From Streptomyces sannanensis (lineage in GTDB: Bacteria > Actinomycetota > Actinomycetes > Streptomycetales > Streptomycetaceae): 64,000 nucleotides of DNA. Shown here piece by piece: positions 38,701 through 57,939 of this stretch. The first letter of the stretch is position 1; each line of letters begins with the position of its first letter. The notes beneath the pieces are model-generated. The model was given only the letters and a program-made list of their open reading frames with translations, did no database searches and was not told where the DNA came from. The translations under genes were made by a program, and so were the position numbers. The stretch lies in NCBI RefSeq assembly GCF_039536205.1, contig NZ_BAAAYL010000001.1:5828001-5892000 (forward strand). The letters are read 5' to 3'.

Positions 38701-38800
38701 GACGGAGATCCTTTCCTGAGCGCGGCGGTGGCAACACGGTGATTCAGGCCGCAGGACACTCGGGATGAGGAGCGCGGGCGACTTTGTCCTGTCGGAGGAA

Positions 38801-38858
38801 AAAGTTGAAGTGGATTGCTGCGCAACTTCTTCCCACTCAGGTCAAGCGCTGCTACGTT
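38801..38858 (+). promoter_or_regulatory. ROK regulator promoter and candidate operator
   Basis: The palindrome AAGTTG (38802-38807) and CAACTT (38823-38828) flanks GGATTGCTGCG. It is followed by a -35 like TTCCCA (38830-38835), a 17-bp spacer and a -10 like TACGTT (38853-38858). The whole arrangement, including AAGTT.AA, TTGCTGC.CAA and GCTACG.TCC, recurs at 46361-46422 before the 1006-residue secreted protein. Transcription should start near 38865. Confidence 0.7.
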
Positions 38859-38902
38859 CCCTCGAAAGCCCGGCAGACAGCCGAAGAGGCGGGGAGGGAT
38901 TC

Positions 38903-40093: not shown

Positions 40094-40182
40094 TCCCGGG
40101 CCCTCCGGGCCCGTACGACCGCATCGCCGCACCTGGTTCTGCCCTGCCCGCTCACCGGCCGCACCCGCCGAGGGGAACCGTC

Positions 40183-42815: not shown

Positions 42816-42874
42816 ACGTCGGGCCTCGCAACCGCCCCACCCCGCGTACGAATTGAACGAAGGGTCCAGCAGCC

Positions 42875-43912
42875 ATGCCAGAAACCAGCCGCAGAGGACT
42901 GCTCTTCGGCACCGCGGCCGTCTCCGCGGGCGCCCTCCTCACCGCCTGCACCAGCAACGAGCCCAAGAAGGAGACCCCCGCCGCCGACAGCCGGCCGGCC
43001 GCGGACGACAAGCCCGGCAAGCACGTCACCATCGGTTTCGCCGGCCCCAAGGCCGACCACGGCTGGCTCAACGCCATCAACGAGAACGCGAAGGCGCGGG
43101 CCGGGAAGTACTCGGACGTGACCCTGGAGATCACCGGGGGGTCCAACGACATCGCCGCGCAGATCGGCCAGATCGACACGCTGATCAACAAGAAGGTCGA
43201 TGTGCTGGTGATCCTGCCGGCCGACGGAAAGGCGCTCACCCAGGTCGGGCTGAAGGCGATGAAGGCCGGCATCCCCGTCGTCAACCTGGACCGTGTCTTC
43301 GCCTCGCCGCAGGCCTACCGCTGCTGGATCGGCGGCGACAACTACGGCATGGGCCTCAACGCCGGACGGTTCATCGGCGAGCGGCTGAAGGACAAGCCCG
43401 ACGCCAAGGTCGTCGAACTGGCGGGCATGGACAACCTGGAACTGACCAAGCAGCGCACCCAGGGCTTCGACGACGCCCTGAAGAACTACCCCAACATCAA
43501 GAAGGTGGCGCGGCAGGCCGCCGATTTCACGGTGGAGACGGGCCAGGCCAAGATGGCCCAACTGCTTCAGGCCCAGAAGCAGTTCGACGCACTGTGGAAC
43601 CACGACGACGACCAGGGCGTGGGCGCGCTGCGTGCCATCCAGCAGGCGGGCCGGGACGACTTCCTGATGGTCGGCGGCGCCGGCGCCAAGTCCGCGATGG
43701 ACGCGATCAAGGCCGACGACTCCGTGCTCAAGGCCACGGTGCTCTATCCGCCGACCATGGCAGCCTCCGCCATCGACCTGGCCCGGGCGCTGGGCCAGGG
43801 CAAGGGCGTCGGCGGCCTCTCCGAGCTGGAGATCCCGGCCTCGCTCACCCTCTACTCGGCCGTGGTCACCAAGGACAACGTCGACGAATACCTGCCCACC
43901 GGCTTCAGGTGA
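42875..43912 (+). CDS. Sugar ABC transporter substrate-binding lipoprotein
   Basis: A 345-residue protein with a twin-arginine start (ETSRRGLLFG) and lipobox LLTAC, so probably Tat-exported and lipid-anchored. The mature part is a periplasmic-binding-protein type I fold: VTIGFAGPKADHGWLNAINE, VDVLVILPADGKAL and IPVVNLDRVF. It captures the sugar for the CUT2 importer. GAAGGG lies upstream of the ATG. Its substrate is probably a glycoside, sugar or cyclitol, judged by the downstream enzymes. Confidence 0.92.
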   Translation: MPETSRRGLLFGTAAVSAGALLTACTSNEPKKETPAADSRPAADDKPGKHVTIGFAGPKADHGWLNAINENAKARAGKYSDVTLEITGGSNDIAAQIGQIDTLINKKVDVLVILPADGKALTQVGLKAMKAGIPVVNLDRVFASPQAYRCWIGGDNYGMGLNAGRFIGERLKDKPDAKVVELAGMDNLELTKQRTQGFDDALKNYPNIKKVARQAADFTVETGQAKMAQLLQAQKQFDALWNHDDDQGVGALRAIQQAGRDDFLMVGGAGAKSAMDAIKADDSVLKATVLYPPTMAASAIDLARALGQGKGVGGLSELEIPASLTLYSAVVTKDNVDEYLPTGFR

Positions 43913-43961
43913 CCCGCGCTTTCACACGCCGGATTCCAGTGACCGTGGAGGAGGATCACAT

Positions 43962-45128
43962 ATGGCCCGTACCGAACAGACAACGCTTGGCATCGGCATG
44001 GTGGGTTACGCATTCATGGGTGCCGCCCACTCCCAGGGGTGGCGCACCGTGGGACGCGTCTTCGACCTGCCGATGCGGCCGGTCCTCGCGGCCGTCTGCG
44101 GCCGTGACCGGGCCGCCGTACGGGCCGCGGCGGACAAGCATGGCTGGGCGGACGCGGAGACCGACTGGCGCGACCTCGTCGCCCGCGACGACGTCCAGGT
44201 CGTCGACATCTGCACACCGGGGGACAGCCACGCGGAGATCGCGATCGCCGCACTGGAGGCGGGCAAGCACGTGCTGTGCGAGAAGCCGCTCGCCAATTCG
44301 GTCGAGGAGGCCGAAGCCATGGCCTCGGCTGCCCGGCGAGCCCGCGAGCAGGGCGTCGTGGCGATGGTCGGCTTCAACTACCGTCGAACGCCCGCGATGG
44401 CCTTCGCCCGCCGCATGGTCGAGGAGGGCAGGATCGGCGCGTTTCGGCACGTACGCATCAGCTACCTCCAGGACTGGCTCGTCGACCCGGAGTTCCCGCT
44501 CACCTGGCGGCTGGAGCGCGAACACGCCGGCTCGGGGGCGCTCGGCGACCTGGGGGCGCACATCGTGGACCTCGCGCAGTATCTGTCGGGGGAGACCCTG
44601 GTGGGGGTGTCGGCCATTGCCGAGACCTTCGTACGGGAGCGGCCGCTGCCCGGCGGCGGCTCCCGCGGGACCGTCACCGTCGACGACGCGGTGCTGTTCA
44701 CCGGGCGGCTCGCCTCGGGTGCGCTGGCGTTCTTCGAGGCCACCCGCATGGCGGCGGGCCGCAAGAACTCGCTGCGTCTGGAGCTCAACGGAGAGCGCGG
44801 CTCGCTCGCCTTCGACCTGGAACGGCTCAACGAGCTGTCCTTCCACGACCACACCGAGCCCGTCGCCTCGGCCGGCTTCCGGCGGATCCTGGTCACCGAG
44901 CCCGACCACCCCTATCTGGAGGCGTGGTGGCCGCCGGGCCATGCCCTCGGCTACGAGCACACCTTCGTCCACCAGGCGCGCGATCTGGTCGAGGCGATCG
45001 CCACCGGCTCGGACCCCTCGCCGTCCTTCGCGGACGGCCTCCAGGTACAGCGGGTCCTGGCAGCCGTGGAGGAGAGCGCCGAGAAGAACGCGGTCTACAC
45101 GCCCGTACCCGCACAGGAGGTGCCGTAA
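43962..45128 (+). CDS. Gfo/Idh/MocA oxidoreductase
   Basis: A 388-residue NAD(P)-dependent sugar dehydrogenase. The Rossmann loop is GIGMVGYAFMGAAHSQGW, the catalytic-lysine motif is VLCEKPLANSVEEAE, and GALGDLGAHIVDLAQYL contains the conserved Asp and His. Enzymes of this type oxidise a sugar or inositol hydroxyl, often C3 of a glycoside or C2 of inositol. It is followed without a gap by a TIM-barrel isomerase, a common pair in glycoside 3-oxidation pathways. Confidence 0.92.
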   Translation: MARTEQTTLGIGMVGYAFMGAAHSQGWRTVGRVFDLPMRPVLAAVCGRDRAAVRAAADKHGWADAETDWRDLVARDDVQVVDICTPGDSHAEIAIAALEAGKHVLCEKPLANSVEEAEAMASAARRAREQGVVAMVGFNYRRTPAMAFARRMVEEGRIGAFRHVRISYLQDWLVDPEFPLTWRLEREHAGSGALGDLGAHIVDLAQYLSGETLVGVSAIAETFVRERPLPGGGSRGTVTVDDAVLFTGRLASGALAFFEATRMAAGRKNSLRLELNGERGSLAFDLERLNELSFHDHTEPVASAGFRRILVTEPDHPYLEAWWPPGHALGYEHTFVHQARDLVEAIATGSDPSPSFADGLQVQRVLAAVEESAEKNAVYTPVPAQEVP

Positions 45129-46130
45129 ATGCCCCGCCCCTTCACGCTCTTCACCGGTCAGTGGGCCGACCTGCCACTGGAGGAGGTCTGCCGGTACGCC
45201 CGTGACTTCGGCTACGACGGACTCGAACTCGCCTGCTGGGGCGACCACTTCGAGGTCGACAAGGCTCTCACGGACCCCGGCTACCTCGACTCGCGTCGGC
45301 AACTCCTCGACAAGTACGGGCTGAAGTGCTGGACGATCTCCAACCATCTGGTCGGCCAAGCCGTCTGCGACAACCCGATCGACGAGCGCCACCAGGCGAT
45401 CCTGCCCGCCAGGATCTGGGGCGACGGCGACCCAGAGGGCGTGCGGCAGCGGGCGGCCGCGGAGATGAAGGACACCGCCCGGGCGGCGGCAGCCTTCGGC
45501 GTGCGAACCGTCGTCGGCTTCACCGGCTCGTCCATCTGGCATCTGGTCGCGATGTTCCCGCCGGCCCCGCCGCGGATGGTCGAGCGCGGCTACGAGGACT
45601 TCGCCGAGCGCTGGAACCCCGTTCTCGACGTCTTCGACGCGGAGGGCGTGCGCTTCGCCCATGAGGTGCACCCGGGCGAGATCGCGTACGACTACTGGAC
45701 CACCCAGCGCGCACTGGAGGCGATCGGCCGGCGGCCGGCCTTCGGGCTCAACTTCGATCCCAGCCATTTCGTGTGGCAGGACCTGGACCCGGTGGGCTTC
45801 CTGTGGGACTTCCGGGACCGGATTTACCACGTGGACTGCAAGGAGGCACGGAAGCGCCTCGACGGGCGCAACGGCCGGCTCGGCTCCCATCTGCCCTGGG
45901 GCGACCCGCGGCGTGGCTGGGACTTCGTTTCCGCGGGCCATGGCGATGTGCCATGGGAGGACGTCTTCAGGATGTTCCGTTCGATCGGCTACGAGGGGCC
46001 CGTGTCGGTGGAGTGGGAGGACGCCGGAATGAACCGCCTGGCGGGCGCACGCGAGGCGCTGGCCACGCTGAAGCGGTACGACTTCGACCCGCCGAACGCG
46101 GCGTTCGACGCGGCGTTCGGGGGTGCGTAG
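45129..46130 (+). CDS. Sugar phosphate isomerase/epimerase-type TIM barrel (AP-endonuclease 2 superfamily)
   Basis: A 333-residue xylose-isomerase-like barrel. Metal ligands are visible as Glu in [12 protein letters not shown], Asp/His in [13 protein letters not shown], His in YHVDCKEA and Glu in VSVEWEDAG. It isomerises or cleaves a keto-sugar. ATG follows the upstream stop TAA directly, with AGGAGG eight bases before. Relatives next to Gfo/Idh/MocA enzymes act on 3-keto-glycosides, which fits here but is inferred. Confidence 0.9.
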
Positions 46131-46592: not shown

Positions 46593-49500
46593 GTGCAACT
46601 CCTGCACAGAAGACGGCCCAGAACCCGGAACGCACTCGCACTCCTCGCCGGCGCCCTGCTCACCCTCGGGGTCCTGCCGGCCACGACATCCGCCGCCGAA
46701 CCCGCACCGGCCACCGCCGGGGCGACGGCGGCCGCCGAGAAGTTCGAGCAGGTCACGCTCGCCAAGGGAGCCGACGAGGTCGGCGAGCCCATGTCGCTGG
46801 CCGTGCTCCCCGACCGCAGCGTGCTGCACACCTCGCGCAACGGCGAGCTGCGCATCACCGACAGCGCGGGCAACACGCGCGTCGCCGGCACGATCCCCGT
46901 CTACACGCATGACGAGGAAGGCCTCCAGGGCATCGGCGTCGACCCGAAGTTCAACGAGAACCGCTTCATCTACCTCTACTACGCGCCCCCGCTGGACACC
47001 CCCGCCGGCGACGCGCCCGACCAGGGCACCGAAGCCGACTTCGCCAAGTTCGACGGCGTCAACCGGCTCTCGCGGTTCGTCCTCCGCCCGGACGGCACCC
47101 TCGACAACGCCAGCGAGAAGAAGATCCTCGACGTCCCCGCGACCCGCGGCATCTGCTGCCATGTCGGCGGCGACATCGACTTCGACGCGCAGGGCAATCT
47201 GTATCTGTCCACCGGCGACGACTCCAACCCCTTCGCCTCCGACGGCTACACGCCCATCGACGACCGGCCGGGCCGCAATCCCGCGTACGACGCCCGCCGA
47301 ACCTCGGGCAACACCAATGACCTGCGCGGCAAGATCCTCCGGATCAAGGTGAACGACGACGGCTCGTACTCCGTCCCGGCCGGCAACCTCTTCGCGCCGG
47401 GGACCGGGAAGACCCGGCCCGAGATCTATGCCATGGGCTTTCGCAACCCCTTCCGGTTCAGCGTCGACAAGCCCACCGGCATCCTCTACGTCGGTGACTA
47501 CGGGCCCGACGCGGGCGCGGCCGACCCCAAGCGGGGTCCGGCCGGGCAGGTCGAGTTCGCCCGGGTGACCAAGCCCGGCAACTACGGCTGGCCGTTCTGC
47601 ACCGGCAACAACGACCCCTACATCGACTACGACTTCGCGACGAAGGTGTCCGGCGACACCTACGACTGTGCCGCGCTCAAGAACGACTCGCCGTACAACA
47701 CCGGGCTCGTCGACCTGCCGCCCGCGCAGCCGGCCTGGATCCCCTACGACGGCGGATCCGTACCCGAGTTCGGTTCGGGGTCGGAGTCGCCCATGGGCGG
47801 ACCTGTCTACCGATATGACGCGAATTCGGCTTCCCCGGTGAAGTTCCCGGAATCGTACGACGGCGACTTCTTCGCGGGGGAGTTCGGCCGGCGCTGGATC
47901 AAGCGCATCGAGCAGTCGGCGGACGGCGCGGTGCAGTCCATCAATGCCTTCCCCTGGACCGGGACACAGGTGATGGACATGTCGTTCGGACCGGACGGGG
48001 CGCTGTACGTGCTCGACTACGGCACCGCCTGGTTCGGAGGCAACGAGGACTCCGCCCTCTACCGCATCGACAACGTCACCAGCGGGCGCTCCCCGGTCGC
48101 CGAGGCCTCCGCGGACAAGACCTCCGGCCAGGCCGGACTGCGTGTCCGGTTCTCGTCCAAGGGCACCAAGGACGCGGACGGCGACCCGCTCACGTACTCC
48201 TGGGACTTCGGTGACGGCGGCACGTCCACCCTGGCCGACCCCGCCCACACGTACAAGCAGAACGGCACCTACACCGCCACCCTCACCGCCAAGGACCCCT
48301 CGGGGCTTACCGGTTCGGCGAGCGTACGCATCGTCGTGGGCAACACCGCTCCCAAGGTGACCCTCCAACTCCCGGGCGACGGCCAGCTGTTCTCCTTCGG
48401 CGACGAGATCCCCTTCAAGGTCCGCGTCACGGACCCGGAGGACGGCGACGCCATCGACTGTGCCAAGGTCAAGGTGACGTACGTTCTCGGCCACGACAGC
48501 CATGGCCACCCGGTCACTTCCGCCAACGGCTGCACCGGCACCATCAAGACCTCCGCGGACGGCGGCCACGACCCCAACGCCAATATCTTCGGGGTCTTCA
48601 ACGCCGAGTACACGGACGGCGGAGGCGGCGGCCAGGCCACGCTCTCCGGCCATGACCACGCCGCGCTCCAGCCCAAGCAGCGCCAGGCCGAGCACTACAC
48701 CACGTCCTCCGGCGTCAATAAGATCGACAAGGCGGCGGCGCACGGCGGCAGGACAGTCGGCGACATCCACAACGGCGACTGGATCGCCTTCACGCCGTAC
48801 CGCATCGGCGACGCCAAGCTGCTGACCGCGCGCGTCTCCTCGGGCGGTGTCGGCGGCACCCTGGAGGTGCGGGCCGGGGCGCCGGACGGACAGCTCGTCG
48901 GCTCCGCGACCGTGCCGGTGACCGGCGGCTGGGAGAAATTCCAGGACGTCGCGGCCGGGATCAGCAAGCCGCCGACCGGGACCACCACCCTCTACCTCGT
49001 CTTCAAGGGGCCTGACACCGGGGCGCTCTACGACATCGACGACTTCACCTTCACCACTGGGCCGCGCAACAACGGCTACACCTCCCTCTTCGACGGGAAG
49101 ACGAAGGACGGCTGGAAGCAGGCCGGGCCCGGCTCCTTCACCGTCGCGGACGGGGCGCTGCACACCGAGGGCGGCATGGGAATGCTCTGGTACGAGAAGG
49201 AATTCGCCTCGTACTCGCTGAAGCTCGACTGGAAGGTCGCCGGCGACGACAACTCCGGCGTCTTCGTGGGCTTCCCGGCCTCCGACGACCCCTGGTCCGC
49301 GGTGAACAAGGGCTACGAGATCCAGATCGACGCCACGGACGCCCCGGACCGTACGACCGGAGCCGTCTACAGCTTCCAGTCCGCCGACATCAAGGCGCGG
49401 GACAAGGCCCTGCGGCCGCCGGGGGAGTGGAATTCGTACGAGATCCGGGTCGAGGGCGAGCGGCTGCGCGTCTACCTCAACGGCACGCTCATCAACGACT

Positions 49501-49613
49501 TCACCAACAGCGAACCGGTCCGCAGCCTGCGCCAGGGACACATCGGCCTGCAGAACCACGGACCGGGCGACGAGGTCTCCTTCCGCAACATCCGGATCAA
49601 GGAGCTTCCCTAG
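46593..49613 (+). CDS. Secreted multidomain PQQ-type sugar dehydrogenase / PKD / CBM / DUF1080 protein
   Basis: 1006 residues with a Sec-type signal (RRRPRTRNALALLAGALLTL, cleavage after TTSAAE). Order: soluble sugar-dehydrogenase-type beta-propeller (about 50-500, with LRGKILRIK and GDIDFDAQGNLYLSTGDDSN), a PKD domain (about 505-590, with YSWDFGDGGTS), a bridging region, a carbohydrate-binding module (about 695-820), and a DUF1080 domain (about 825-1005). DUF1080 includes 3-keto-disaccharide hydrolases. It probably oxidises or hydrolyses sugars outside the cell. GGAGG lies six bases before the GTG. Confidence 0.87.
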   Translation: MQLLHRRRPRTRNALALLAGALLTLGVLPATTSAAEPAPATAGATAAAEKFEQVTLAKGADEVGEPMSLAVLPDRSVLHTSRNGELRITDSAGNTRVAGTIPVYTHDEEGLQGIGVDPKFNENRFIYLYYAPPLDTPAGDAPDQGTEADFAKFDGVNRLSRFVLRPDGTLDNASEKKILDVPATRGICCHVGGDIDFDAQGNLYLSTGDDSNPFASDGYTPIDDRPGRNPAYDARRTSGNTNDLRGKILRIKVNDDGSYSVPAGNLFAPGTGKTRPEIYAMGFRNPFRFSVDKPTGILYVGDYGPDAGAADPKRGPAGQVEFARVTKPGNYGWPFCTGNNDPYIDYDFATKVSGDTYDCAALKNDSPYNTGLVDLPPAQPAWIPYDGGSVPEFGSGSESPMGGPVYRYDANSASPVKFPESYDGDFFAGEFGRRWIKRIEQSADGAVQSINAFPWTGTQVMDMSFGPDGALYVLDYGTAWFGGNEDSALYRIDNVTSGRSPVAEASADKTSGQAGLRVRFSSKGTKDADGDPLTYSWDFGDGGTSTLADPAHTYKQNGTYTATLTAKDPSGLTGSASVRIVVGNTAPKVTLQLPGDGQLFSFGDEIPFKVRVTDPEDGDAIDCAKVKVTYVLGHDSHGHPVTSANGCTGTIKTSADGGHDPNANIFGVFNAEYTDGGGGGQATLSGHDHAALQPKQRQAEHYTTSSGVNKIDKAAAHGGRTVGDIHNGDWIAFTPYRIGDAKLLTARVSSGGVGGTLEVRAGAPDGQLVGSATVPVTGGWEKFQDVAAGISKPPTGTTTLYLVFKGPDTGALYDIDDFTFTTGPRNNGYTSLFDGKTKDGWKQAGPGSFTVADGALHTEGGMGMLWYEKEFASYSLKLDWKVAGDDNSGVFVGFPASDDPWSAVNKGYEIQIDATDAPDRTTGAVYSFQSADIKARDKALRPPGEWNSYEIRVEGERLRVYLNGTLINDFTNSEPVRSLRQGHIGLQNHGPGDEVSFRNIRIKELP

Positions 49614-49687: not shown

Positions 49688-50809
49688 GTGACGACCACCC
49701 ATCACGTACGCACCGGAGTCTGGTTCGTCGGAGCCCGCGGCTCCGTCGCCACCACGGCCGTCGCGGGGTGCGCGGCCCTCGCCGTGGGCCTCCACCCGGC
49801 GACCGGCCTGGTCACCGAGACCGCGCCGTTCGCGGACTGCGGGCTGCCTCCGCTCTCCTCCCTCGTCTTCGGCGGACACGACACCGCCGACTTCCCGCTC
49901 CCCAAACGGGCCGAGCAGCTGGCTTCGGGCGGCGTCCTGCCGCACGGACTGCCCTCCGCCGTCGCCGCGGAACTCGCGGCCGCGGACGCCGAGATCCGCG
50001 CCGGGGGCCCGCTCCCCGGGGACACCCGTGACGACGAATCCCTCATCGACGCCTTCGCCGCCGACATCTCCGATTTCGTACACCGTCTCGGTCTGGCCCG
50101 GGCCGTCGTCGTCAACGTCGCATCGACGGAACCCCTGCCCGGACCGGACGACCCCCGTCTCCCCGCCAGCTCCCTCTACGCCGCCGCCGCGCTCCGGGCC
50201 GGCTGCTCGTACGTCAACTTCACCCCCTCCACCGGGCTGCGCACCCCGGCCCTCGAGGCCGCCACCGAGGCCGCCGGACTTCCCCACGCCGGCCGCGACG
50301 GCAAGACGGGACAGACACTGCTTCGTTCCGTGCTCGCCCCGATGTTCGTGCAGCGCGCGCTGGACGTACGGGCATGGTCGGGTTCGAACGTCCTGGGGGG
50401 CGGCGACGGGGCGGCGCTCGCCGACCCGGCCGCGGCGGCGGCCAAGAACGCCGGCAAGAACCGCGTCCTCGCCGACACCCTGGGCACCGTGCCCGAGGGC
50501 GAGGTCCACATCGACGACGTGCCGGCGCTGGGAGACTGGAAGACGGCCTGGGACCACATCGCGTTCGACGGCTTCCTCGGCACGCGCATGGTCCTCCAGA
50601 CGATCTGGCAGGGCTGCGATTCGGCCCTGGCGGCACCCCTGGTCCTGGACCTTGCCCGGCTCATCGCCCGCGCCCACGAGGCGGGCCTCTCCGGCCCCCT
50701 CCCCGAACTCGGCTTCTACTTCAAGGACCCCGACGCGGGACCCGCGTCCCTGGCCGACCAGCACACCGCCCTGCTCGCCTTCGCCGCACGCCTGCGGGGC
50801 ATACGGTGA
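49688..50809 (+). CDS. Inositol-3-phosphate synthase (MIPS)
   Basis: A 373-residue NAD-dependent sugar-phosphate cyclase. Features: GVWFVGARGSVATTAVAGCA (NAD loop), NFTPSTGLRTPAL, GRDGKTGQTLLRSVLAPMF (phosphate and lysine region), GSNVLGGGDGAAL and GDWKTAWDHIAFDGFLG. It converts glucose-6-phosphate to inositol-3-phosphate. GTG 49688 has GAGGAGG upstream. It starts a coupled unit with the UbiA prenyltransferase (GTGA overlap) and the ebo-like genes, suggesting that its cyclitol product feeds that pathway rather than general inositol supply. Confidence 0.88.
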   Translation: MTTTHHVRTGVWFVGARGSVATTAVAGCAALAVGLHPATGLVTETAPFADCGLPPLSSLVFGGHDTADFPLPKRAEQLASGGVLPHGLPSAVAAELAAADAEIRAGGPLPGDTRDDESLIDAFAADISDFVHRLGLARAVVVNVASTEPLPGPDDPRLPASSLYAAAALRAGCSYVNFTPSTGLRTPALEAATEAAGLPHAGRDGKTGQTLLRSVLAPMFVQRALDVRAWSGSNVLGGGDGAALADPAAAAAKNAGKNRVLADTLGTVPEGEVHIDDVPALGDWKTAWDHIAFDGFLGTRMVLQTIWQGCDSALAAPLVLDLARLIARAHEAGLSGPLPELGFYFKDPDAGPASLADQHTALLAFAARLRGIR

Positions 50810-51933
50810 GCGCCCTCGCGGCCTGGGCCGAGCTCCTGCGGGTCTCCGCCCTGGTCACCGTGCCCGGCGACGCCCTGGCCGGCGCCGCCTCGGTGGGCCT
50901 GCGCCCGAACCGCCGCACCGCGCTCGCCGTCGGCGCCTCGCTCTGCCTGTACGAGGTGGGCATGGCCCTCAACGACTGGGCCGACCGCGACGAGGACGCC
51001 CTGGACCGTCCGCACCGTCCGATCCCCTCCGGCCGCATCGCCCCGGGCGCAGCCCTGGCCGCGGCGGGCACCCTGACCGCGGCGGGCCTCACGCTGGCCG
51101 CCCGCGCCGGCCGCCCGGCCCTGGCGACGGCAACGGCCCTGGCGGCGACGGTCTGGGCGTACGACCTGCACCTCAAGCACACCGGTCTCGGACCGCCCAC
51201 CATGGCCGCGGCCCGCGCCCTGGACCTCTTGCTGGGCGCAGCTGCCACCGCGTACCGCGCCCCCGGGGCCGCCACGGGGCCCGCAGGGACTGCCGGGCGG
51301 CCCATGCGGCAAGCGCTGCCGCACGCCGCGTTACTCGGTGCGCACACGTATGCGGTCACCACGATCTCGCGCCACGAGGCACACGGCGGCCCATCCGCAG
51401 TGCCTCTGGCAGCCCTGGCAGCCACCTCGGCACTCGGGGCGATCGCCGCCCGCACGCGCGCGGCGCGGAACCGGCCGTCTGCCGTCCTCGCCCGCCCGGG
51501 CAGGGGCCGGGGGACGCAGTCCCCGTCGGGCCCACGCACCGTCGGCCCTGGGGCGCAGCCCCTCACGTGGCGGAGCTGCATATCGACACTGCCGAGAAGG
51601 GGAGGGACCGGGGAACTCCTCCGCCCGCCACCCGCACCGCCGGCCTCGCACAACCCAGCACTCCGCACCGCCCACTGGGCCGCCGAACAGTTCGCCACCC
51701 CGGCCGGCATCGCCGCCGCCGCTTACCTGCACACCGCCGCCAAGCCGTACCTCCACGCCGCCCTCAACCCCTCGCCGCCCCTCACCCAGCGCGCCGTGGG
51801 CAGCGGGATCAAGGCCATGATCCCGCTCCAGGCGGCCCTGGCCGCCCGCGCCGGGGCGGCCGGAACCGGCGCCGTGCTCCTGGCACTCGCCCCGCTCGCC
51901 CGCCGCCTCGCCCGGAAGGTGAGCCCCACATGA
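50806..51933 (+). CDS. eboC: UbiA-family prenyltransferase (SCO3242/EboC-type)
   Basis: A 375-residue membrane enzyme with the UbiA Asp-rich motif NDWADRDEDALDRPHRP and the second motif YDLHLKHTGLGPP. It joins a prenyl chain to an acceptor. Its GTG overlaps the MIPS stop and its stop overlaps the next ATG, so it is co-translated. Between helices near residues 228-275 a low-complexity stretch (RPGRGRGTQSPSGPRTVG onward) is encoded by dispersed-repeat DNA inserted in frame. The natural acceptor may be a cyclitol from the preceding enzyme (inference). Confidence 0.85.
   Translation: MSALAAWAELLRVSALVTVPGDALAGAASVGLRPNRRTALAVGASLCLYEVGMALNDWADRDEDALDRPHRPIPSGRIAPGAALAAAGTLTAAGLTLAARAGRPALATATALAATVWAYDLHLKHTGLGPPTMAAARALDLLLGAAATAYRAPGAATGPAGTAGRPMRQALPHAALLGAHTYAVTTISRHEAHGGPSAVPLAALAATSALGAIAARTRAARNRPSAVLARPGRGRGTQSPSGPRTVGPGAQPLTWRSCISTLPRRGGTGELLRPPPAPPASHNPALRTAHWAAEQFATPAGIAAAAYLHTAAKPYLHAALNPSPPLTQRAVGSGIKAMIPLQAALAARAGAAGTGAVLLALAPLARRLARKVSPT
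51486..51620. repeat. Dispersed repeat inserted in frame within the UbiA gene
   Basis: GGGGGACGCAGTCCCC-type hairpins and GGCGGAGCTGCATATCGACA (51569-51588) match the intergenic repeat copies at 1911-1935 and 18455-18480. Here the repeat is translated without stop codons, adding roughly 45 residues to a loop of the prenyltransferase. The exact ends were judged by eye. Confidence 0.65.
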
Positions 51934-52787
51934 ACACACCCCGCTACGGCTACGGCACCAACGGCCTCACCGACCTCCGACTCGACGACGCCCTCGTCCT
52001 CCTCGCCGACCTCGGCTACGACGGAGTCGGGCTGACCCTCGACCACATGCATCTCGACCCGCTCGCCCCGGACCTTCCCACCCGCACCCGTGCACTCGCC
52101 CGCCGGCTGGACCGACTGGGTCTCGGCGTCACCGTCGAGACGGGCGCGCGCTATGTACTCGACCCGCGCCGCAAGCACGGCCCCTCCCTCCTGGACGCCG
52201 ACCCGGACGCCCGTGCCGCCCGCGTCCGCCTCCTGATCCGCGCCGTAGAGGTCGCCGCGGACCTGGGCGCCCACGCCGTCCACTGCTTCAGCGGCATCAC
52301 CCCCGAGGCCACCACACCCGACACCGCCTGGAAACGCCTCGCCGAGGCCCTCGCCCCGGTCCTTGCCGCGGCCCGGGCCCACGGCATTCCGCTCGCCGTC
52401 GAACCGGAACCGGGCCATCTCCTCGCCACCCTCTCCGACTTCCACCACCTCCGCTCCCTCCTCGGCGATCCCGAACACCTCGGGCTCACCCTCGACATCG
52501 GTCACTGCCAGTGCCTGGAGCCGGAGCCGCCCGCCGCGTGCGTGCGCGCGGCGGCGCCCTGGCTGCGGCATGTCCAGATCGAGGACATGCGCCGCGGGGT
52601 GCACGAACACCTCCCGTTCGGGGAGGGGGAAATCGACTTCCCGCCCGTACTGCGGGCACTGGCCGACACCGGCTACCAGGGCCTGACCGTCGTCGAACTG
52701 CCCCGCCACTCCCACGCGGGACCCGAACTCGCCGAGCGCTCCCTGCGCTTTCTGCGCGCCGCACAAGCTGCTGGAGGTGCCACATGA
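51930..52787 (+). CDS. Sugar phosphate isomerase/epimerase-type TIM barrel of the ebo-like unit
   Basis: A 285-residue AP-endonuclease-2-type barrel. Glu in LAVEPEPGHLL, Asp/His in LTLDIGHCQCLE, His in RHVQIEDMRRG and Glu in TVVELPRHSH are the metal-ligand positions. It would isomerise or epimerise a sugar or cyclitol. ATG overlaps the prenyltransferase stop and has AAGGTGAG upstream. Its product overlaps EboA by an ATGA, making this the third gene of a tightly coupled unit. Confidence 0.88.
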   Translation: MNTPRYGYGTNGLTDLRLDDALVLLADLGYDGVGLTLDHMHLDPLAPDLPTRTRALARRLDRLGLGVTVETGARYVLDPRRKHGPSLLDADPDARAARVRLLIRAVEVAADLGAHAVHCFSGITPEATTPDTAWKRLAEALAPVLAAARAHGIPLAVEPEPGHLLATLSDFHHLRSLLGDPEHLGLTLDIGHCQCLEPEPPAACVRAAAPWLRHVQIEDMRRGVHEHLPFGEGEIDFPPVLRALADTGYQGLTVVELPRHSHAGPELAERSLRFLRAAQAAGGAT

Positions 52788-53395
52788 CCACCGCCGACGC
52801 ACAGATGTCCGCCCTGCACGACCGCCTGACGGCACACCTCCCGGCCGCCGCCCGCGCCTGGCTCGGCCATGCCCTGGCGGAGGCCGAAGCCGGAACCCCT
52901 GCCTGGGAGGCGCGCTTCGCCGAAGCCGGCCGCCGATGCGGGTCGGACGACGCCGCGGAGGCGGCCCGCGTCCTGCTCCTCCACACGGCGCGCCCCGACG
53001 CGGCCACCACGACCCGGCTCTACACCCGCGGCACCGCCGACGAACGCCGCGCCGTACTGAACGCCCTGCCCCATGTCGCCCTCGCCCCGTATACCGGGGT
53101 CGCGCTGCTCGAGGACGCCCTGCGCACCAACGACACCCGGCTGGTCGCCGCGGCCGTCGGCCCGTACGCCGCCACCCACCTGGACCCGCACGGCTGGCGG
53201 CACGCCGTCCTCAAGTGCCTGTTCACCGGGGTTCCGGCAGGCGCCGTCGAGGGGCTGGCGCGCCGTGCCCGGGGAGACGCCGAGCTGGCCCGGATGCTCA
53301 CCGACTACGCGGCCGAACGCACCGCCGCCGACCGCCCCGTCCCCGAAGACCTGCACCGCGTACTGGCCCTGACCGGCGAGGCAGAGGAGTCCTGA
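52784..53395 (+). CDS. eboA: EboA-type protein
   Basis: A 203-residue soluble helical protein. The recognisable EboA pattern includes ARLLLLHTA-like ARVLLLHTARP, DERRAVLNALPHVAL, VALLEDALRTNDTRLVAAAV and HGWRHAVLKCLFTGVPAGAV. The biochemical role of EboA is unknown; the ebo genes are linked to transport of metabolites or precursors. GGAGG is six bases before the ATG, which overlaps the previous stop. The stop overlaps the TatD-type gene (TGATG). Confidence 0.82.
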   Translation: MTTADAQMSALHDRLTAHLPAAARAWLGHALAEAEAGTPAWEARFAEAGRRCGSDDAAEAARVLLLHTARPDAATTTRLYTRGTADERRAVLNALPHVALAPYTGVALLEDALRTNDTRLVAAAVGPYAATHLDPHGWRHAVLKCLFTGVPAGAVEGLARRARGDAELARMLTDYAAERTAADRPVPEDLHRVLALTGEAEES

Positions 53396-54243
53396 TGCGC
53401 ATCTTCGACCCCCACATCCATATGACCTCCCGTACCACCGACGACTACGAGGCGATGTACGCCGCGGGGGTGCGCGCCCTCGTCGAGCCCTCCTTCTGGC
53501 TGGGCCAGCCCCGCACGTCGCCCGCCGCCTTCCTCGACTACTTCGACTCCCTCCTCGGCTGGGAGCCCTTCCGGGCCGCCCAGTACGGCATCGCGCACCA
53601 CTGCACGATCGCCCTCAACCCCAAGGAGGCCAACGATCCCCGCTGCACCCCCGTCCTGGACGAACTGCCCCGCTATCTCGTCAAGGACAACGTCGTCGCC
53701 GTCGGCGAGATCGGCTACGACTCCATGACCCCGGCGGAGGACACCGCGCTCGCCGCCCAGCTCCAGCTCGCCGCCGACCACGGCCTGCCGGCCCTCGTCC
53801 ACACCCCGCACCGGGACAAGCTCGCCGGTCTGCGCCGCACCCTCGACGTGGTCCGTGAATCCGCGCTGCCCCCCGACCGGGTCCTGCTCGACCACCTCAA
53901 CGAGACGACCGTGAAGGAAGCGGCCGCGAGCGGCTGCTGGCTCGGCTTCTCCATCTATCCCGACACCAAGATGGACGAGGAACGCATGGTCGCCGTCCTC
54001 AAGGCGCACGGCACCGAGAAGGTCCTGGTCAACTCGGCCGCGGACTGGGGAAGGAGCGACCCCCTCAAGACCCGCAAGGTCGGCGACGCGATGCTGAGGG
54101 CAGGTTTCACCGAGGACGACGTCGACCAGGTGCTGTGGCGCAACCCGGTCGCCTTCTACGGCATCGGCGGCCGACTGCGCCTCGACATCACCGACCCGGG
54201 CGCCACCCACGAGGGCAACTCGATCCTCCGCGGCGGGGCATGA
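53395..54243 (+). CDS. TatD-family metal-dependent hydrolase (EboB-type)
   Basis: A 282-residue amidohydrolase-fold enzyme. Metal ligands: FDPHIHMTSR (HxH), Glu in VVAVGEIGYDSM, His in PALVHTPHRDK, His in LDHLNETTV and Asp in NSAADWGRSD. Relatives are TatD nucleases and the ebo TatD-like protein, whose substrate is unknown. AGGAG lies upstream of ATG. It is fully coupled to EboA and followed three bases later by the EboE-type gene. Confidence 0.87.
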   Translation: MRIFDPHIHMTSRTTDDYEAMYAAGVRALVEPSFWLGQPRTSPAAFLDYFDSLLGWEPFRAAQYGIAHHCTIALNPKEANDPRCTPVLDELPRYLVKDNVVAVGEIGYDSMTPAEDTALAAQLQLAADHGLPALVHTPHRDKLAGLRRTLDVVRESALPPDRVLLDHLNETTVKEAAASGCWLGFSIYPDTKMDEERMVAVLKAHGTEKVLVNSAADWGRSDPLKTRKVGDAMLRAGFTEDDVDQVLWRNPVAFYGIGGRLRLDITDPGATHEGNSILRGGA

Positions 54244-54246
54244 GCC

Positions 54247-55416
54247 ATGCGCTTCCGCCACCCGGACGGCTCCACCGTCCATCTCGCGTACTGCACCAAT
54301 GTGCACCCGGCCGAGACCCTCGACGGTGTACTCGCCCAGCTGCGCGACCACTGCGAGCCGGTCCGCAGACGCCTCGGCCGGGACAGGCTCGGTATCGGCC
54401 TCTGGCTGGCCAAGGACGCCGCACGGGCCCTGACCGACGACCCGGCGTCCCTGCGGGGCCTCCGCGCCGAACTCGACCGCCGTGGCCTCGAAGTCGTCAC
54501 CCTCAACGGCTTCCCGTACGAGGGGTTCGGCGCCGAACAGGTCAAGTACCGCGTGTACAAGCCGGACTGGACCGACCCGGAACGGCTCACGTACACCGCG
54601 GACCTGGCCCGGCTGCTGGCCGCGCTGCTCCCCGACGACGCCACCGAGGGCAGCGTCTCCACCCTGCCGCTGGCCTGGCGCACCGGCTATGACGACGCGG
54701 CGGCCGTCACCGCCCACGCCGCACTCACCACCCTGGCCGAACGCCTCGACGCGCTGGAGGAACTCACCGGGAAATCCATCCGCGTCGGCCTGGAGCCCGA
54801 ACCCGGCTGCATCGTCGAGACCGTCGCCGACGCCCTCGGCCCGCTGGCCGCCCTCGCTTCCCCGCGCCTCGGCGTCTGTGTGGACACCTGCCATCTCGCC
54901 ACCTCCTTCGAAGACCCCGCGACCGCGTTCGCCGCGCTCGCCACCGCCCGTGTCCCCGTCGTCAAGGCACAGCTGTCCGCCGCCCTGCACGCCGAACACC
55001 CCCACCTGCCGGAGGTGCGCGAGGCCCTGACGGCGTTCGCCGAGCCCCGTTTCCTCCATCAGACCCGCACCTCCACCGCCGCCGGGCCGCGCGGCACCGA
55101 CGACCTCGGCGAAGCGCTCTCCGGTGAGACACTGCCCGACGCCTCACCCTGGCGCGCCCACTTCCATGTCCCCCTGCACGCCCCGCCCGCCCCGCCGCTC
55201 ACCTCCACCCTCGACGTGCTCCGGGAGGCCCTGACCCGTCTCGTCGGCGGACCGGCCCCGCGCACCCGCCACCTCGAGGTCGAGACCTACACCTGGCAGG
55301 CCCTCCCGCCCGAGCTGCGCCCCCGCACCAGGGACCAGCTCGCCGACGGCATCGCCGCGGAACTCACCCTCGCCCGTGACCTCCTGACCGACCTCGGCCT
55401 CAAGGAACTCCCATGA
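54247..55416 (+). CDS. eboE: EboE-type metabolite traffic protein (TIM barrel)
   Basis: A 389-residue xylose-isomerase-like protein with the EboE pattern VHLAYCTNVHPAETLDGVLA at the N-terminus, VTLNGFPYEGFGAEQVKYRV, Glu in VGLEPEPGCIVE and His in VCVDTCHLATSF, and a C-terminal RTRHLEVETYTWQALP. The ebo proteins are implicated in moving precursors across the membrane. The ribosome site is weak, and translation may be coupled to the gene before. Its stop overlaps the next ATG. Confidence 0.87.
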   Translation: MRFRHPDGSTVHLAYCTNVHPAETLDGVLAQLRDHCEPVRRRLGRDRLGIGLWLAKDAARALTDDPASLRGLRAELDRRGLEVVTLNGFPYEGFGAEQVKYRVYKPDWTDPERLTYTADLARLLAALLPDDATEGSVSTLPLAWRTGYDDAAAVTAHAALTTLAERLDALEELTGKSIRVGLEPEPGCIVETVADALGPLAALASPRLGVCVDTCHLATSFEDPATAFAALATARVPVVKAQLSAALHAEHPHLPEVREALTAFAEPRFLHQTRTSTAAGPRGTDDLGEALSGETLPDASPWRAHFHVPLHAPPAPPLTSTLDVLREALTRLVGGPAPRTRHLEVETYTWQALPPELRPRTRDQLADGIAAELTLARDLLTDLGLKELP

Positions 55417-56858
55417 ACCAGTACCGGGCCCGGACCGAGGACCACCCGAAGGACGGGCCCGACAGCCGTCCCGGGCACCCCACCCCGCTGCTCGTCATCG
55501 ATGTCGTCGGCCTCACCCCCCGGCTCCTCGACCACATGCCCCGCCTCAGGGCACTCGGCGTGTCGGGCTCCCGCGCCCCGCTCGGCACCGTGCTGCCCGC
55601 CGTCACCTGCGCCGCCCAGTCCACCTTCCTCACCGGTGCCCTGCCCGCCGAGCACGGCATCGTCGGCAACGGCTGGTACTTCCGCGAACTCGGCGAGGTC
55701 CTGCTGTGGCGCCAGCACAACGGACTCGTCTCCGGCGACAAGATCTGGGACGCCGCCCGCAGGGCCCATCCCGGCTACACCGTCGCGAATATCTGCTGGT
55801 GGTACGCCATGGGCGCGGACACCGACATCACCGTCACCCCCCGTCCCGTCTACTACGCCGACGGCCGCAAGGAACCCGACTGCTACACCCGGCCGCCCGC
55901 CCTCCACGACGAACTCACCGAGAAGTTCGGCACCTTCCCCCTGTTCCACTTCTGGGGCCCGGGCGCCGACATCGTCTCCTCACGCTGGATCGTCGACGCG
56001 ACCCGCCACATCAACCGCACCCGCCGGCCCGATCTGACTCTCTGCTACCTCCCGCACCTCGACTACGACCTCCAGCGTCACGGCCCCGACGACCCCCGCT
56101 CCCACCGGGCCGCCGCCGACCTCGACGCCGTCCTCGCCCCACTCCTCGACGACGCCCGAGCCGAGGGCCGTACCGTCGTCGCGCTGTCCGAGTACGGCAT
56201 CACCCGCGTGTCCCGTCCCGTCGACATCAACCGCGCCCTGCGCCGCGCCGGCCTGCTGGAGGTCCACACCCAGGACGGCATGGAGTATCTCGACCCCATG
56301 GCCTCCCGCGCCTTCGCCGTCGCCGACCACCAGCTCGCCCATGTCTATGTACGCCGTACCGAGGACCTCGCCGCCACCCGCGAAGCCCTCGCCGGCCTCC
56401 CCGGCATCGCCGAACTCCTCGACGACGAGGGCAAGAAGAACCACGGGCTCGACCACCCCCGCTCCGGCGAACTCGTCGCCGTGGCCGAGCCCGACGCCTG
56501 GTTCACGTACTACTACTGGCTCGACGACGACCGAGCCCCCGACTTCGCGCAGCTCGTCGAGATCCACCGCAAACCCGGCTACGACCCCGTCGAGCTGTTC
56601 ATGGACCCCCTCGACCCGTACGTACGCCTGAAGGCAGCCGCCGCGCTCGCCCGCAAGAAGCTCGGCATGCGCTACCGCATGGCGGTCGTCCCCCTCGACC
56701 CCTCGCCTGTGCGCGGCAGCCACGGCCGCCTCCCCGAGAGCGACGACGAAGGTCCGCTCATCCTGTGCTCCACCCCCCACGCCGTGTCCGGCCGCGTCGC
56801 GGCCACCGAAGTGAAGTCCCTGCTTCTGCACCTCGCCGGAATCTCCGGAATCCACTGA
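55413..56858 (+). CDS. eboF: Type I phosphodiesterase / nucleotide pyrophosphatase-family protein (EboF-type)
   Basis: A 481-residue alkaline-phosphatase-superfamily enzyme. The first metal Asp is in LLVIDVVGLTPRLLD, the Thr nucleophile in AVTCAAQSTFLTG, and Asp/His ligands in LPHLDYDLQRHG, ALSEYGI and VADHQLAHVYV. It would hydrolyse a phosphodiester or pyrophosphate. No signal peptide is visible. It is the last gene of the coupled unit; ebo clusters end with a gene of this type. Confidence 0.85.
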   Translation: MNQYRARTEDHPKDGPDSRPGHPTPLLVIDVVGLTPRLLDHMPRLRALGVSGSRAPLGTVLPAVTCAAQSTFLTGALPAEHGIVGNGWYFRELGEVLLWRQHNGLVSGDKIWDAARRAHPGYTVANICWWYAMGADTDITVTPRPVYYADGRKEPDCYTRPPALHDELTEKFGTFPLFHFWGPGADIVSSRWIVDATRHINRTRRPDLTLCYLPHLDYDLQRHGPDDPRSHRAAADLDAVLAPLLDDARAEGRTVVALSEYGITRVSRPVDINRALRRAGLLEVHTQDGMEYLDPMASRAFAVADHQLAHVYVRRTEDLAATREALAGLPGIAELLDDEGKKNHGLDHPRSGELVAVAEPDAWFTYYYWLDDDRAPDFAQLVEIHRKPGYDPVELFMDPLDPYVRLKAAAALARKKLGMRYRMAVVPLDPSPVRGSHGRLPESDDEGPLILCSTPHAVSGRVAATEVKSLLLHLAGISGIH

Positions 56859-56904: not shown

Positions 56905-57939
56905 GTGAAGCACACGTCCACCGACCCCGAACTCGCCCACCGCCTCACCAGACGCTCCATGCTCGGCGTCGCCGCGGGCGCCACCGCCGCCGCCCTCCTC
57001 GGCACCACGGCCGCCGCCCCGGCCGCCGCCACCGAACTCCCCGGCCAAGGCCTCGGCCGCCCCGTCCTGCCCCCCGGCCGCCTGGGAATCCAGCTCTACT
57101 CCCTCCGCGACAAGGTCGCGACCCTCGGCTTCGCCCAGGTCTTCGCCGAGCTCCAGCGCTACGGCTACGACGAGGTCGAGTACGCCGGCTACACCCAGGG
57201 CTCCGCGGGCCCCCTCACCCTCGCCCAGCTCAAGCAGCTGACCCACGACCACGGCCTGCGCGCCATAGGCAGCCACGTCGGCTACTACTCCGACAACCCC
57301 ACCGCCTACACCTTCGCCCAGAACCTCACCCGGGTCCTCGACGACGCCGAGGCCCTCGGCCTCAAGCACATCGGCACGGCATCGGGACCCTGGCGCTACG
57401 GCGCCACCGTCGACGGCTGGAAGCGCTGCGCCGAGGAGTTCAACCGGTTCGGCGCCGAGGCGAAGAAGCGCGGCATGAAGTTCTACCAGCACAACCACTC
57501 GGAGGAGTTCTCCTTCGCCACCGACCGCCCCGACGTACGCCTCTACGACGTGCTGCTCGCCGAGACCGACCCCTCCCTCGTCCATCTGGAGATGGACATC
57601 TTCTGGGCGTACGTCGGCCAGTACCGCTACTCCAGGCGCGTCGACGGCACCCCCGCCCCCTTCGACCCGCTCGACTACGTCCTCGCCCAGCCCGACCGCT
57701 ATCCGCTCTTCCACGTCAAGGACGGCACCCGCGACGGCTCCGCCCCTTACGGCTACCAGATGACGGACGTGGGGGACGGGGACATCGACTACCGGCGCTT
57801 CATCGCCGAGGTGACCAGGATCAGCGGCGGCCGCCCCGCCCACCACTGGCAGGCCGAGCGCGACAACCCCACCGACTCGCTCTCGTTCGCGCGCCGTTCC
57901 GGCGACCACCTCCACTCGCTGCGCGAGAAGGCCGGCTGA
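56905..57939 (+). CDS. Tat-exported sugar phosphate isomerase/epimerase-type TIM barrel
   Basis: A 344-residue protein with a clear twin-arginine signal (RLTRRSMLGVAAGATAAALL, then APAAATE). The mature domain is an AP-endonuclease-2-type barrel: RLGIQLYSLRDK, QHNHSEEFSF, LEMDIFWAYVGQ, LFHVKDGTRDG and AHHWQAERDN carry the likely metal ligands. It acts outside the membrane, presumably on a keto-sugar or glycoside. GTG 56905 has AGGAG upstream. It follows the ebo-like unit by 46 bases and could share its function or that of the 3-keto-glycoside genes. Confidence 0.88.
   Translation: MKHTSTDPELAHRLTRRSMLGVAAGATAAALLGTTAAAPAAATELPGQGLGRPVLPPGRLGIQLYSLRDKVATLGFAQVFAELQRYGYDEVEYAGYTQGSAGPLTLAQLKQLTHDHGLRAIGSHVGYYSDNPTAYTFAQNLTRVLDDAEALGLKHIGTASGPWRYGATVDGWKRCAEEFNRFGAEAKKRGMKFYQHNHSEEFSFATDRPDVRLYDVLLAETDPSLVHLEMDIFWAYVGQYRYSRRVDGTPAPFDPLDYVLAQPDRYPLFHVKDGTRDGSAPYGYQMTDVGDGDIDYRRFIAEVTRISGGRPAHHWQAERDNPTDSLSFARRSGDHLHSLREKAG

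What the first reader, a model, noticed from the sequence alone, without database searches (positions are those of the whole stretch)
49688..56858. ebo-like metabolite-traffic unit with inositol-3-phosphate synthase in place of the EboD cyclase
Seven genes are linked by stop-start overlaps or gaps of three bases: MIPS, UbiA prenyltransferase, TIM-barrel isomerase, EboA, TatD-type hydrolase, EboE, type I phosphodiesterase. The described ebo clusters contain EboA, a TatD-like protein, a UbiA prenyltransferase, a dehydroquinate-synthase-like sugar-phosphate cyclase (EboD), EboE and a phosphodiesterase. Here the only sugar-phosphate cyclase is MIPS, from a different family. I infer that the common requirement is a cyclitol, and that UbiA prenylates a cyclitol or cyclitol phosphate to make a lipid-linked carrier. 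This would give a chemical role to a cluster of unknown mechanism.
Basis: partly seen in the sequence, partly recalled or inferred. Interest (0 to 1): 0.75.

Follow-up and report, generated by a model that had tools for sequence, protein, structure and literature searches.

The report
Inositol-synthase version of ebo operon
Streptomyces and related bacteria carry a version of a widespread, poorly understood membrane-metabolite operon in which the usual ring-forming enzyme is replaced by a dedicated inositol-phosphate synthase, which suggests that what the operon needs is a ring-shaped sugar alcohol joined to a membrane lipid.

Summary
In detail: seven tightly packed genes (49688-56858), a Streptomyces ebo unit with myo-inositol-phosphate synthase (MIPS) and no EboD. 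It is a lineage-wide variant. Of 98 actinobacterial EboE loci examined, 84 had MIPS and none EboD; of 83 others, 70 had EboD, 1 MIPS, none both. From the MIPS side, among 345 genomes of the class, ebo-type MIPS occurred in 77, all with EboE plus other ebo genes; 1 of 78 such genomes lacked it. Three Gemmatimonadota genomes repeat the coupling. MIPS comes with an extra TIM-barrel isomerase, keeps the compared active-site residues in 86 of 87 copies (one gap), and the linked UbiA has its own TM1 signature. The host has a second MIPS; no EboD-type protein was found in it. The prenyl-cyclitol idea was published for EboD-type ebo in 2016 (PMC5133447); the MIPS/EboD exchange I found in no paper searched. 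It supports a cyclitol as the common requirement; prenylation of it is inferred. A GSDH-type beta-propeller lies near 52 of 84 actinobacterial MIPS units. New variant of a known kind.

The parts
49688..50809 (+). MIPS, archaeal-type myo-inositol-phosphate synthase dedicated to the ebo unit (replaces EboD)
   Evidence: PF07994/PF01658; best solved relative Archaeoglobus fulgidus MIPS, 197.5 bits; active-site residues kept; only 34.6 bits to the mycothiol INO1 model, cut-off 638
50806..51933 (+). UbiA-superfamily prenyltransferase, SCO3242 family (EboC counterpart) with a variable loop insert
51930..52787 (+). xylose-isomerase-like TIM barrel ('I'), counted only in MIPS-type units and MIPS-less actinobacterial relatives
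   Evidence: PF01261; weak PDB matches to ketose epimerases and IolE; distribution
52784..53395 (+). EboA-domain protein
   Evidence: NF035938 157.6 bits; ATG start
53395..54243 (+). TatD-like metal hydrolase (EboB)
   Evidence: PF01026; conserved in the units
54247..55416 (+). EboE, TIM barrel with ketose-3-epimerase-like predicted fold
55413..56858 (+). EboF-type phosphodiesterase / alkaline-phosphatase-like hydrolase
   Evidence: PF01663, E 1.2e-67
46593..49613 (+). frequent neighbour, not core: protein with GSDH beta-propeller, PKD, CBM6 and 3-keto-disaccharide hydrolase domains; leader peptide read by eye
   Evidence: Pfam; GSDH within 10.5 kb in 52 of 84 actinobacterial MIPS units
56905..57939 (+). 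neighbour, not core: TIM-barrel sugar isomerase-like protein with a Tat-like leader (read by eye)
   Evidence: PF01261; matches in 43 MIPS-type loci, of which 16 (window included) over 400 bits, the rest weaker TIM barrels
45129..46130 (+). neighbour, not core: TIM-barrel protein, weakly IolE-like
   Evidence: PF01261; matches in 36 MIPS-type loci, window included

Best explanation
This is the actinobacterial form of the ebo unit. A dedicated MIPS has replaced the DHQS-type cyclase EboD, together with an added TIM-barrel isomerase and a co-diverged UbiA. Proposed working: MIPS makes inositol 3-phosphate (or a close cyclitol phosphate) from glucose 6-phosphate; the epimerase-type TIM barrels (I and/or EboE) adjust an oxidised form of the ring; UbiA attaches a prenyl chain to the cyclitol or its phosphate, much as DGGGP synthase prenylates a polyol phosphate; EboF and the TatD-like protein trim phosphate or ester groups. 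The prenyl-cyclitol serves at the membrane in moving or finishing a metabolite outside the cytoplasm, as the ebo genes do for scytonemin monomer in Nostoc. Shown here: gene content, exchange of cyclases, linkage, conserved active-site residues, UbiA divergence. Inferred: every reaction, their order, and the traffic role.
For: Exchange of cyclases: 84 MIPS/0 EboD in Actinomycetota, 70 EboD/1 MIPS elsewhere, 0 with both near one EboE, 181 loci in all. Ebo-type MIPS in 77 of 345 class genomes, all with EboE plus other ebo genes; 1 of 78 such genomes without it. Gemmatimonadota: EboE in 3 of 121 genomes, and the close ebo-type MIPS (626-966 bits) in the same 3 only. Residues aligned with the A. 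fulgidus MIPS active site kept in 86 of 87 copies, one gap. Dedicated: another MIPS exists besides. UbiA: MIPS-linked proteins separate from EboD-linked ones, with Ala/Gly/Asp against Asn in TM1; a review reports that UbiA clades follow the acceptor, not the donor (PMC9385802, passages). EboE has a ketose-3-epimerase-like predicted fold. Nostoc: the ebo deletions made (eboA, B, C, E, F and the cluster; eboD was not tested) keep scytonemin monomer in the cytoplasm; in a Pseudomonas, hits in eboA, eboD or eboE share one phenotype, so the cyclase belongs to the function (PMC6282210, passages).
Against: No Ebo enzyme has been shown to act on a cyclitol in any paper I saw; the EboC-type enzymes assayed there (Ubi-297 and homologues) farnesylate quinoline-type aromatics in vitro (PMC9235831, passages). 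MIPS-family enzymes can make other products: 6k96 is a five-membered-cyclitol-phosphate synthase, though distant (42.7 bits). One EboD-adjacent UbiA (L120) carries the MIPS-type TM1 signature; whatever lies on its other side is cut off by the contig end. That MAG (G571) holds both EboD and ebo-type MIPS on different contigs, with two different UbiA genes. Module transfer is not proved: AU tests do not reject the alternatives for UbiA (p 0.33) or EboE (p 0.21). The UbiA divergence is largely a phylum split. L019 and L054 are second units without MIPS in genomes that have a MIPS unit; L087 (G269) lacks a nearby MIPS. 8 of 98 actinobacterial loci have EboE alone.
Confidence: 0.5

Rival explanations
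1. The ebo product is a redox-active prenylated ring lipid (aromatised or diketo-cyclitol, quinol-like) that takes electrons from secreted beta-propeller oxidoreductases (ScyE in cyanobacteria, GSDH proteins elsewhere). 'Traffic' would be the visible result of a periplasmic oxidation that cannot run.
For: In 36 genomes that I picked, a GSDH propeller lies within 10.5 kb of 19 actinobacterial units against 0.72 expected from their genome-wide numbers; by genus 12 of 23 against 0.71. A GSDH or ScyE-type propeller in 55 of 84 actinobacterial MIPS and 16 of 69 EboD loci, 0 of 17 EboE-only or edge loci. A scyE deletion and the ebo deletions have the same product defect (PMC6282210, passages). UbiA enzymes commonly make quinones (recalled).
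Against: Imaging and osmotic-shock release put scytonemin monomer in the periplasm of the scyE but not of the ebo mutants (PMC6282210), which favours transport. 29 of 84 actinobacterial MIPS units, 53 of 69 EboD loci and the Gemmatirosa unit showed no propeller in reach. A GSDH match does not prove PQQ or dehydrogenase activity.
Confidence: 0.12
2. MIPS supplies inositol phosphate for another use (inositol lipid, mycothiol or a linked secondary metabolite), and the UbiA prenylates an unrelated aromatic acceptor.
For: Ubi-297 accepts quinoline acids (PMC9235831, passages). In S. coelicolor the pair SCO3243 (MIPS) and SCO3242 is listed with the CDA cluster (PMC3610822, passages).
Against: Another MIPS is already present, and ebo-type MIPS (E <= 1e-60) was absent from every genome of the class sample without an EboE unit. 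MIPS takes the place of EboD in a unit otherwise the same.
Confidence: 0.2
3. The MIPS homologue makes a cyclitol phosphate other than inositol phosphate (as the five-membered-cyclitol enzyme does), so the common acceptor is a rarer ring.
For: A MIPS-family member of that name has a solved structure (6k96); the paired isomerase could provide an unusual ketose phosphate.
Against: Sequence is far closer to true MIPS (197.5 against 42.7 bits), with the equivalents of D225, N255, K274, K278, K306, D332, K367 kept.
Confidence: 0.15
4. The unit is an accessory to the neighbouring 3-keto-glycan/anhydrosugar uptake genes and not a lipid pathway.
For: Upstream genes: ROK regulator, sugar ABC transporter, levoglucosan-dehydrogenase-like protein, GSDH/3-keto-disaccharide hydrolase; parts of this set recur.
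Against: Parts of the set are missing from many units (TIM 45129 matched in 36 MIPS-type loci; GSDH in 52 of 84 actinobacterial ones), and MIPS, UbiA and EboA are biosynthetic or membrane-linked.
Confidence: 0.06

Closest known systems
EboD-type ebo operon of Bacteroidota, Cyanobacteria, Pseudomonadota (eboABCDEF; PMC5133447, PMC6282210)
   Same: EboA, TatD-like EboB, UbiA, EboE and EboF homologues in one unit with one ring-forming cyclase
   Different: Cyclase is MIPS instead of the DHQS-type EboD; an extra TIM-barrel isomerase; the UbiA belongs to the SCO3242 family
S. coelicolor SCO3242/SCO3243 pair (PMC3610822; NCBIfam NF045897)
   Same: The protein that names the UbiA family, listed beside a myo-inositol phosphate synthase
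   Different: Listed there only as genes of the CDA cluster; no link to ebo in the two passages seen. I did not look at the S. coelicolor locus itself
Archaeal DGGGP synthase (6m31; PMC9385802)
   Same: UbiA fold, polyol-phosphate acceptor; best non-ebo NCBIfam match of the window UbiA is a geranylgeranylglycerol-phosphate transferase model, 51 bits
   Different: Acceptor in ebo unknown; far below that model's cut-off of 296
BE-40644 pathway (EEVS plus UbiA-type farnesyl transfer; as described in PMC5133447)
   Same: Cyclitol cyclase plus UbiA making a prenylated ring
   Different: DHQS-type cyclase; a UbiA other than EboC according to that paper

Membership tests
ebo unit | EboE (NF035939) over its cut-off | tested here: met
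   426.6 bits against 250
ebo unit | EboA domain | tested here: met
   NF035938 157.6 against 50; the full EboA family model NF035937 is not reached, 61.1 against 320
ebo unit | TatD-like EboB and phosphodiesterase EboF adjacent | tested here: met
ebo unit | UbiA assigned to EboC (NF035940) | tested here: not met
   112.6 bits against 250; NF045897 instead, 373.3 against 260
ebo unit | DHQS-type EboD | tested here: not met
   none in the unit; of three host matches to PF01761 the two full ones miss NF004852; the third, 22 bits (L004), was read by eye as glycerol-1-phosphate-dehydrogenase-like
EboD-type ebo operon | Required for export of scytonemin monomer or another metabolite | not testable with these tools
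   needs mutants
myo-inositol-phosphate synthase | Two Pfam domains and active-site residues | tested here: met
   which residues are catalytic is recalled
myo-inositol-phosphate synthase | Makes inositol phosphate from glucose 6-phosphate | not testable with these tools
   needs enzyme assay
mycothiol INO1 (TIGR03450) | Score over cut-off | tested here: not met
   34.6 bits against 638
UbiA prenyltransferases | NDxxDxxxD motif, second motif and fold | tested here: met
UbiA prenyltransferases | Transfers a prenyl group to a cyclitol | not testable with these tools
   needs enzyme assay

The most novel reading that the evidence does not exclude
The ebo unit makes a new membrane redox lipid from a cyclitol (inositol in Actinomycetota, a DHQS-type product elsewhere), used as electron acceptor by secreted beta-propeller oxidoreductases such as ScyE and the GSDH proteins beside the units; the cyclase can be exchanged because only the ring matters.
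Probability: 0.1. Interest if true: 0.88.

Novelty: new variant of a known kind. Interest (0 to 1): 0.55.

Why it matters
The chemistry of ebo, present in many phyla and needed for scytonemin export, is unknown. An either/or exchange of two unrelated cyclases narrows the common intermediate to a cyclitol and gives a practical route: MIPS has a known, easily assayed product, so the UbiA acceptor can be tested with inositol phosphates in Streptomyces. It also suggests that SCO3242/SCO3243, listed with the CDA cluster in S. coelicolor, are better read as ebo genes, and it points to secreted beta-propellers as partners.

Tried and rejected
A single module transfer (MIPS + UbiA + isomerase) into Gemmatimonadota was considered. 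The trees lean that way for UbiA (96/89) and TatD (alternative rejected, p 0.002, but on a long branch), while EboE sits with a Rokubacteria EboD-type protein. AU tests for UbiA, EboE and EboF do not reject the alternatives (p 0.33, 0.21, 0.12), and an earlier quick EboE tree even scored the MIPS grouping slightly better. I keep it as a lead only. An earlier UbiA tree used partial stretches for ten rows and was replaced.

Monophyly of ebo-type MIPS is not shown: the general MIPS taken from Gemmatimonadota, Acidobacteriota and Myxococcota genomes nests with it (p 0.11 against one clade).

G571 as a 'both' unit: I first read two contig ends as one broken UbiA gene; they share no end overlap and encode overlapping residues with different DNA, so they are two genes and perhaps two strains.

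Residue distances for the UbiA signature could not be measured: the models return no coordinates. The EboE profile has no PDB relative by sequence at E 0.01. The EboF and isomerase searches gave only weak matches. Many clusters in the neighbour survey are frame shadows of core genes and were not counted.

Not in print: the MIPS/EboD exchange was not found in searches (PMC open library only; most subscription papers are absent). 'inositol' occurs 0 times in PMC5133447, PMC6282210, PMC6092422 and PMC9235831.
Full report
What is there. The window lies in a Streptomyces-like genome of 7.8 Mb (the named close MIPS relatives are nearly all Streptomyces). Between 49688 and 56858 seven genes run on the + strand: MIPS, UbiA, a xylose-isomerase-like TIM barrel, EboA, a TatD-like protein, EboE and a type I phosphodiesterase. 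Stops and starts overlap by four bases or one base, with one 3-base gap. NCBI's own models place the UbiA in the 'SCO3242 family' (373 bits) and not in EboC (112.6 bits, cut-off 250), and the MIPS nowhere near the mycothiol INO1 model (34.6 bits, cut-off 638).

The rest of the genome. PF01658 finds two MIPS: the one here and one elsewhere, which in the tree lies in another clade with MIPS of a Terrabacter and two further genomes; I take it as the housekeeping copy (not scanned against TIGR03450). PF01761 finds three matches: an AroB, a protein that by eye resembles 2-deoxy-scyllo-inosose synthase, and a weak third match that by eye resembles a glycerol-1-phosphate dehydrogenase. The first two score 182.6 and 118.2 bits on the model that two EboD proteins match at 571 and 534 bits (NF004852, cut-off 333). 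So no EboD-type protein was found in the host.

Survey from the EboE side. EboE (NF035939) was found in 11 of 246 genomes drawn across the phylum and 90 of 345 drawn across the class, 83 over the cut-off. I fetched up to 20 kb around 11 phylum places (the twelfth is the window) and around all 79 further over-cut-off class places plus one sub-cut-off place; the other sub-cut-off places were left out of the count. I added nine plasmid loci of my choice, two of them without annotation, out of 48 plasmid records with a match, and 80 named loci from genome contigs, the best 80 of 567 confirmed, ranked by likeness to a Gemmatimonadota EboE and hence rich in EboD-type units. Profiles for each component gave, for 181 loci: Actinomycetota 84 with MIPS, 0 with EboD, 14 with neither; others 70 with EboD, 1 with MIPS, 12 with neither; none with both. 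Of the 14 actinobacterial loci with neither, three (L061, L092, L093) come from genomes whose ebo-type MIPS turned up on another contig (G534, G308, G442), L019 and L054 are second units, L087 has no MIPS in reach, and the other eight are EboE-only loci. L057, counted among the 84, holds a truncated MIPS; its genome (G416) has a full ebo-type copy elsewhere. Gene order MIPS-C-I-A-B-E-F was read in 60 of 84; 16 were read as C-MIPS-I-A-B-E-F, which I did not check one by one and which may partly come from overlapping open frames.

Survey from the MIPS side. Searching 345 genomes of the class with the window MIPS, 77 have an ebo-type match (I set E <= 1e-60); the other type gives E of about 1e-4 to 1e-14. 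All 77 have EboE with other ebo genes. Of 78 such genomes (83 over cut-off minus 5 with EboE alone) only G269 is without it; it has a divergent MIPS (9.6e-52) on another contig. The table 77/0/1/267 has Fisher p 4e-77, which ignores relatedness. Three genomes fall between the types and have no EboE match (G323, G556, G307). In Gemmatimonadota, EboE occurs in 3 of 121 genomes (one in two pieces below cut-off) and the close MIPS type (626-966 bits) in exactly those 3; 107 of the other 118 have only a different MIPS at 197 bits or less, 11 none.

The companion isomerase. The TIM barrel after UbiA accompanies MIPS in 80 of 84 actinobacterial MIPS loci and in the Gemmatimonadota loci, and was not counted in any EboD-type locus at the threshold used. 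Yurchenko et al. had noted that actinobacterial EboA can be fused to such a protein (PMC5133447). So one enzyme (EboD) is exchanged for two.

UbiA. Among extracted UbiA proteins of usable length (66 MIPS-linked actinobacterial, 61 EboD-linked; the rest, the window's own among them, were dropped for length), the residue three after an invariant TM1 Arg is Ala in 66 of 66 MIPS-linked and Asn in 61 of 61 EboD-linked; two neighbours follow (Gly-Asp, against Ala/Thr/Ser then Asn/Asp). The window protein reads Arg-Val-Ser-Ala and Gly-Asp there by eye. Gemmatimonadota proteins are MIPS-like in 3 of 3, but one of these (L120) lies beside an EboD, so with it the EboD-linked count is 61 of 62; a MIPS could lie beyond its contig end. 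Other positions (His/Tyr, Gln/Asp) are EboD-like in Gemmatimonadota, so part of the difference is phylum history. In the AfUbiA structure paper a basic residue, R22, binds the prenyl diphosphate (PMC4106721, passages); that it equals this TM1 Arg is my inference. The UbiA tree puts MIPS-type and Gemmatimonadota UbiA together (96/89), without rejecting the alternative.

Is the MIPS active? The best solved relative is A. fulgidus MIPS (197.5 bits). Equivalents of D225, N255, K274, K278, K306, D332 and K367 are present in 86 of 87 ebo-type copies, the one gap presumably being the truncated L057. The role of these residues is recalled; variants at two of the lysines are visible (3qvw, 3qvx). A five-membered-cyclitol enzyme (6k96) is a distant homologue, so the product is probable, not certain.

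Beta-propeller neighbour. The gene upstream (46593-49613) has GSDH, PKD, CBM6 and 3-keto-disaccharide hydrolase domains. A GSDH protein lies within 10.5 kb of the unit in 52 of 84 actinobacterial MIPS loci, and three more have only a ScyE-type propeller. For 36 actinobacterial genomes that I picked for spread, each genome's own number of GSDH genes predicts 0.72 units with one by chance; 19 have one; by genus 12 of 23 against 0.71. EboD-type loci have a GSDH or ScyE propeller in 16 of 69 (a locus showing only EboD and EboE was classed as edge), EboE-only or edge loci in 0 of 17, the Gemmatirosa unit none. In Nostoc ScyE is held to act after ebo (PMC6282210). I found no statement of this wider association in the passages read ('propeller' and 'PQQ' occur 0 times in that paper); I made no separate search for it.

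How it most likely works, and what is known. The unit probably makes a prenylated cyclitol at the membrane; the cyclase differs by lineage, the rest is constant. The isoprenoid-cyclitol proposal is from 2016 (PMC5133447) and the lipid-carrier proposal from 2018 (PMC6282210). What is added here is the exchange of cyclase families, the companion isomerase, the UbiA signature, and the propeller association. The main weakness is that no step is biochemically shown, and that the EboC-type enzymes assayed in the paper seen used aromatic acceptors (PMC9235831).

Verdict. Real, common in Streptomyces (24 of 33 genomes of the window's genus in the class sample had EboE), unusual in what it implies; a new variant of a known operon, useful because it makes the acceptor question testable.

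Noticed in passing
46593-49613 and homologues in L019-L118: A secreted-looking GSDH/PKD/CBM6/3-keto-disaccharide-hydrolase protein is a recurrent neighbour of MIPS-type ebo units; GSDH or ScyE-type propellers also occur near some EboD-type units.
   Followed up: partly
38765-46130: ROK regulator, sugar ABC transporter, levoglucosan-dehydrogenase-like oxidoreductase (353.5 bits, cut-off 650) and an IolE-like TIM barrel precede the unit; looks like 3-keto-sugar or anhydrosugar uptake.
   Followed up: partly
L158, L161, L075, L103, L106, L116: EboE without other ebo genes, with conserved neighbours that include an inosose-dehydrogenase-like protein and E1/transketolase-like proteins where scanned; may be a cyclitol breakdown pathway.
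   Followed up: partly
L003 (host genome C1:3275369-3278698): A second DHQS-type cyclase, by eye like 2-deoxy-scyllo-inosose synthase, away from the window.
   Followed up: no
L120 and L209 (MAG G571): One Gemmatimonadota MAG holds both EboD and ebo-type MIPS with two different UbiA genes; a possible transition state or a mixed bin.
   Followed up: partly
L057 and G416:C10:202504-203595: A unit with a truncated MIPS in a genome that has a full ebo-type MIPS elsewhere, as if the gene moved.
   Followed up: no
50806-51933: The UbiA has about 88 residues more than its family model; listed homologues vary from 290 to 487 residues, so a loop is variable in length.
   Followed up: no
L118, L218, L219: A shorter EboE-like family (matching the first 242 of 379 model positions) recurs in one actinobacterial family, f77; no other ebo genes were seen in the three stretches fetched.
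   Followed up: no
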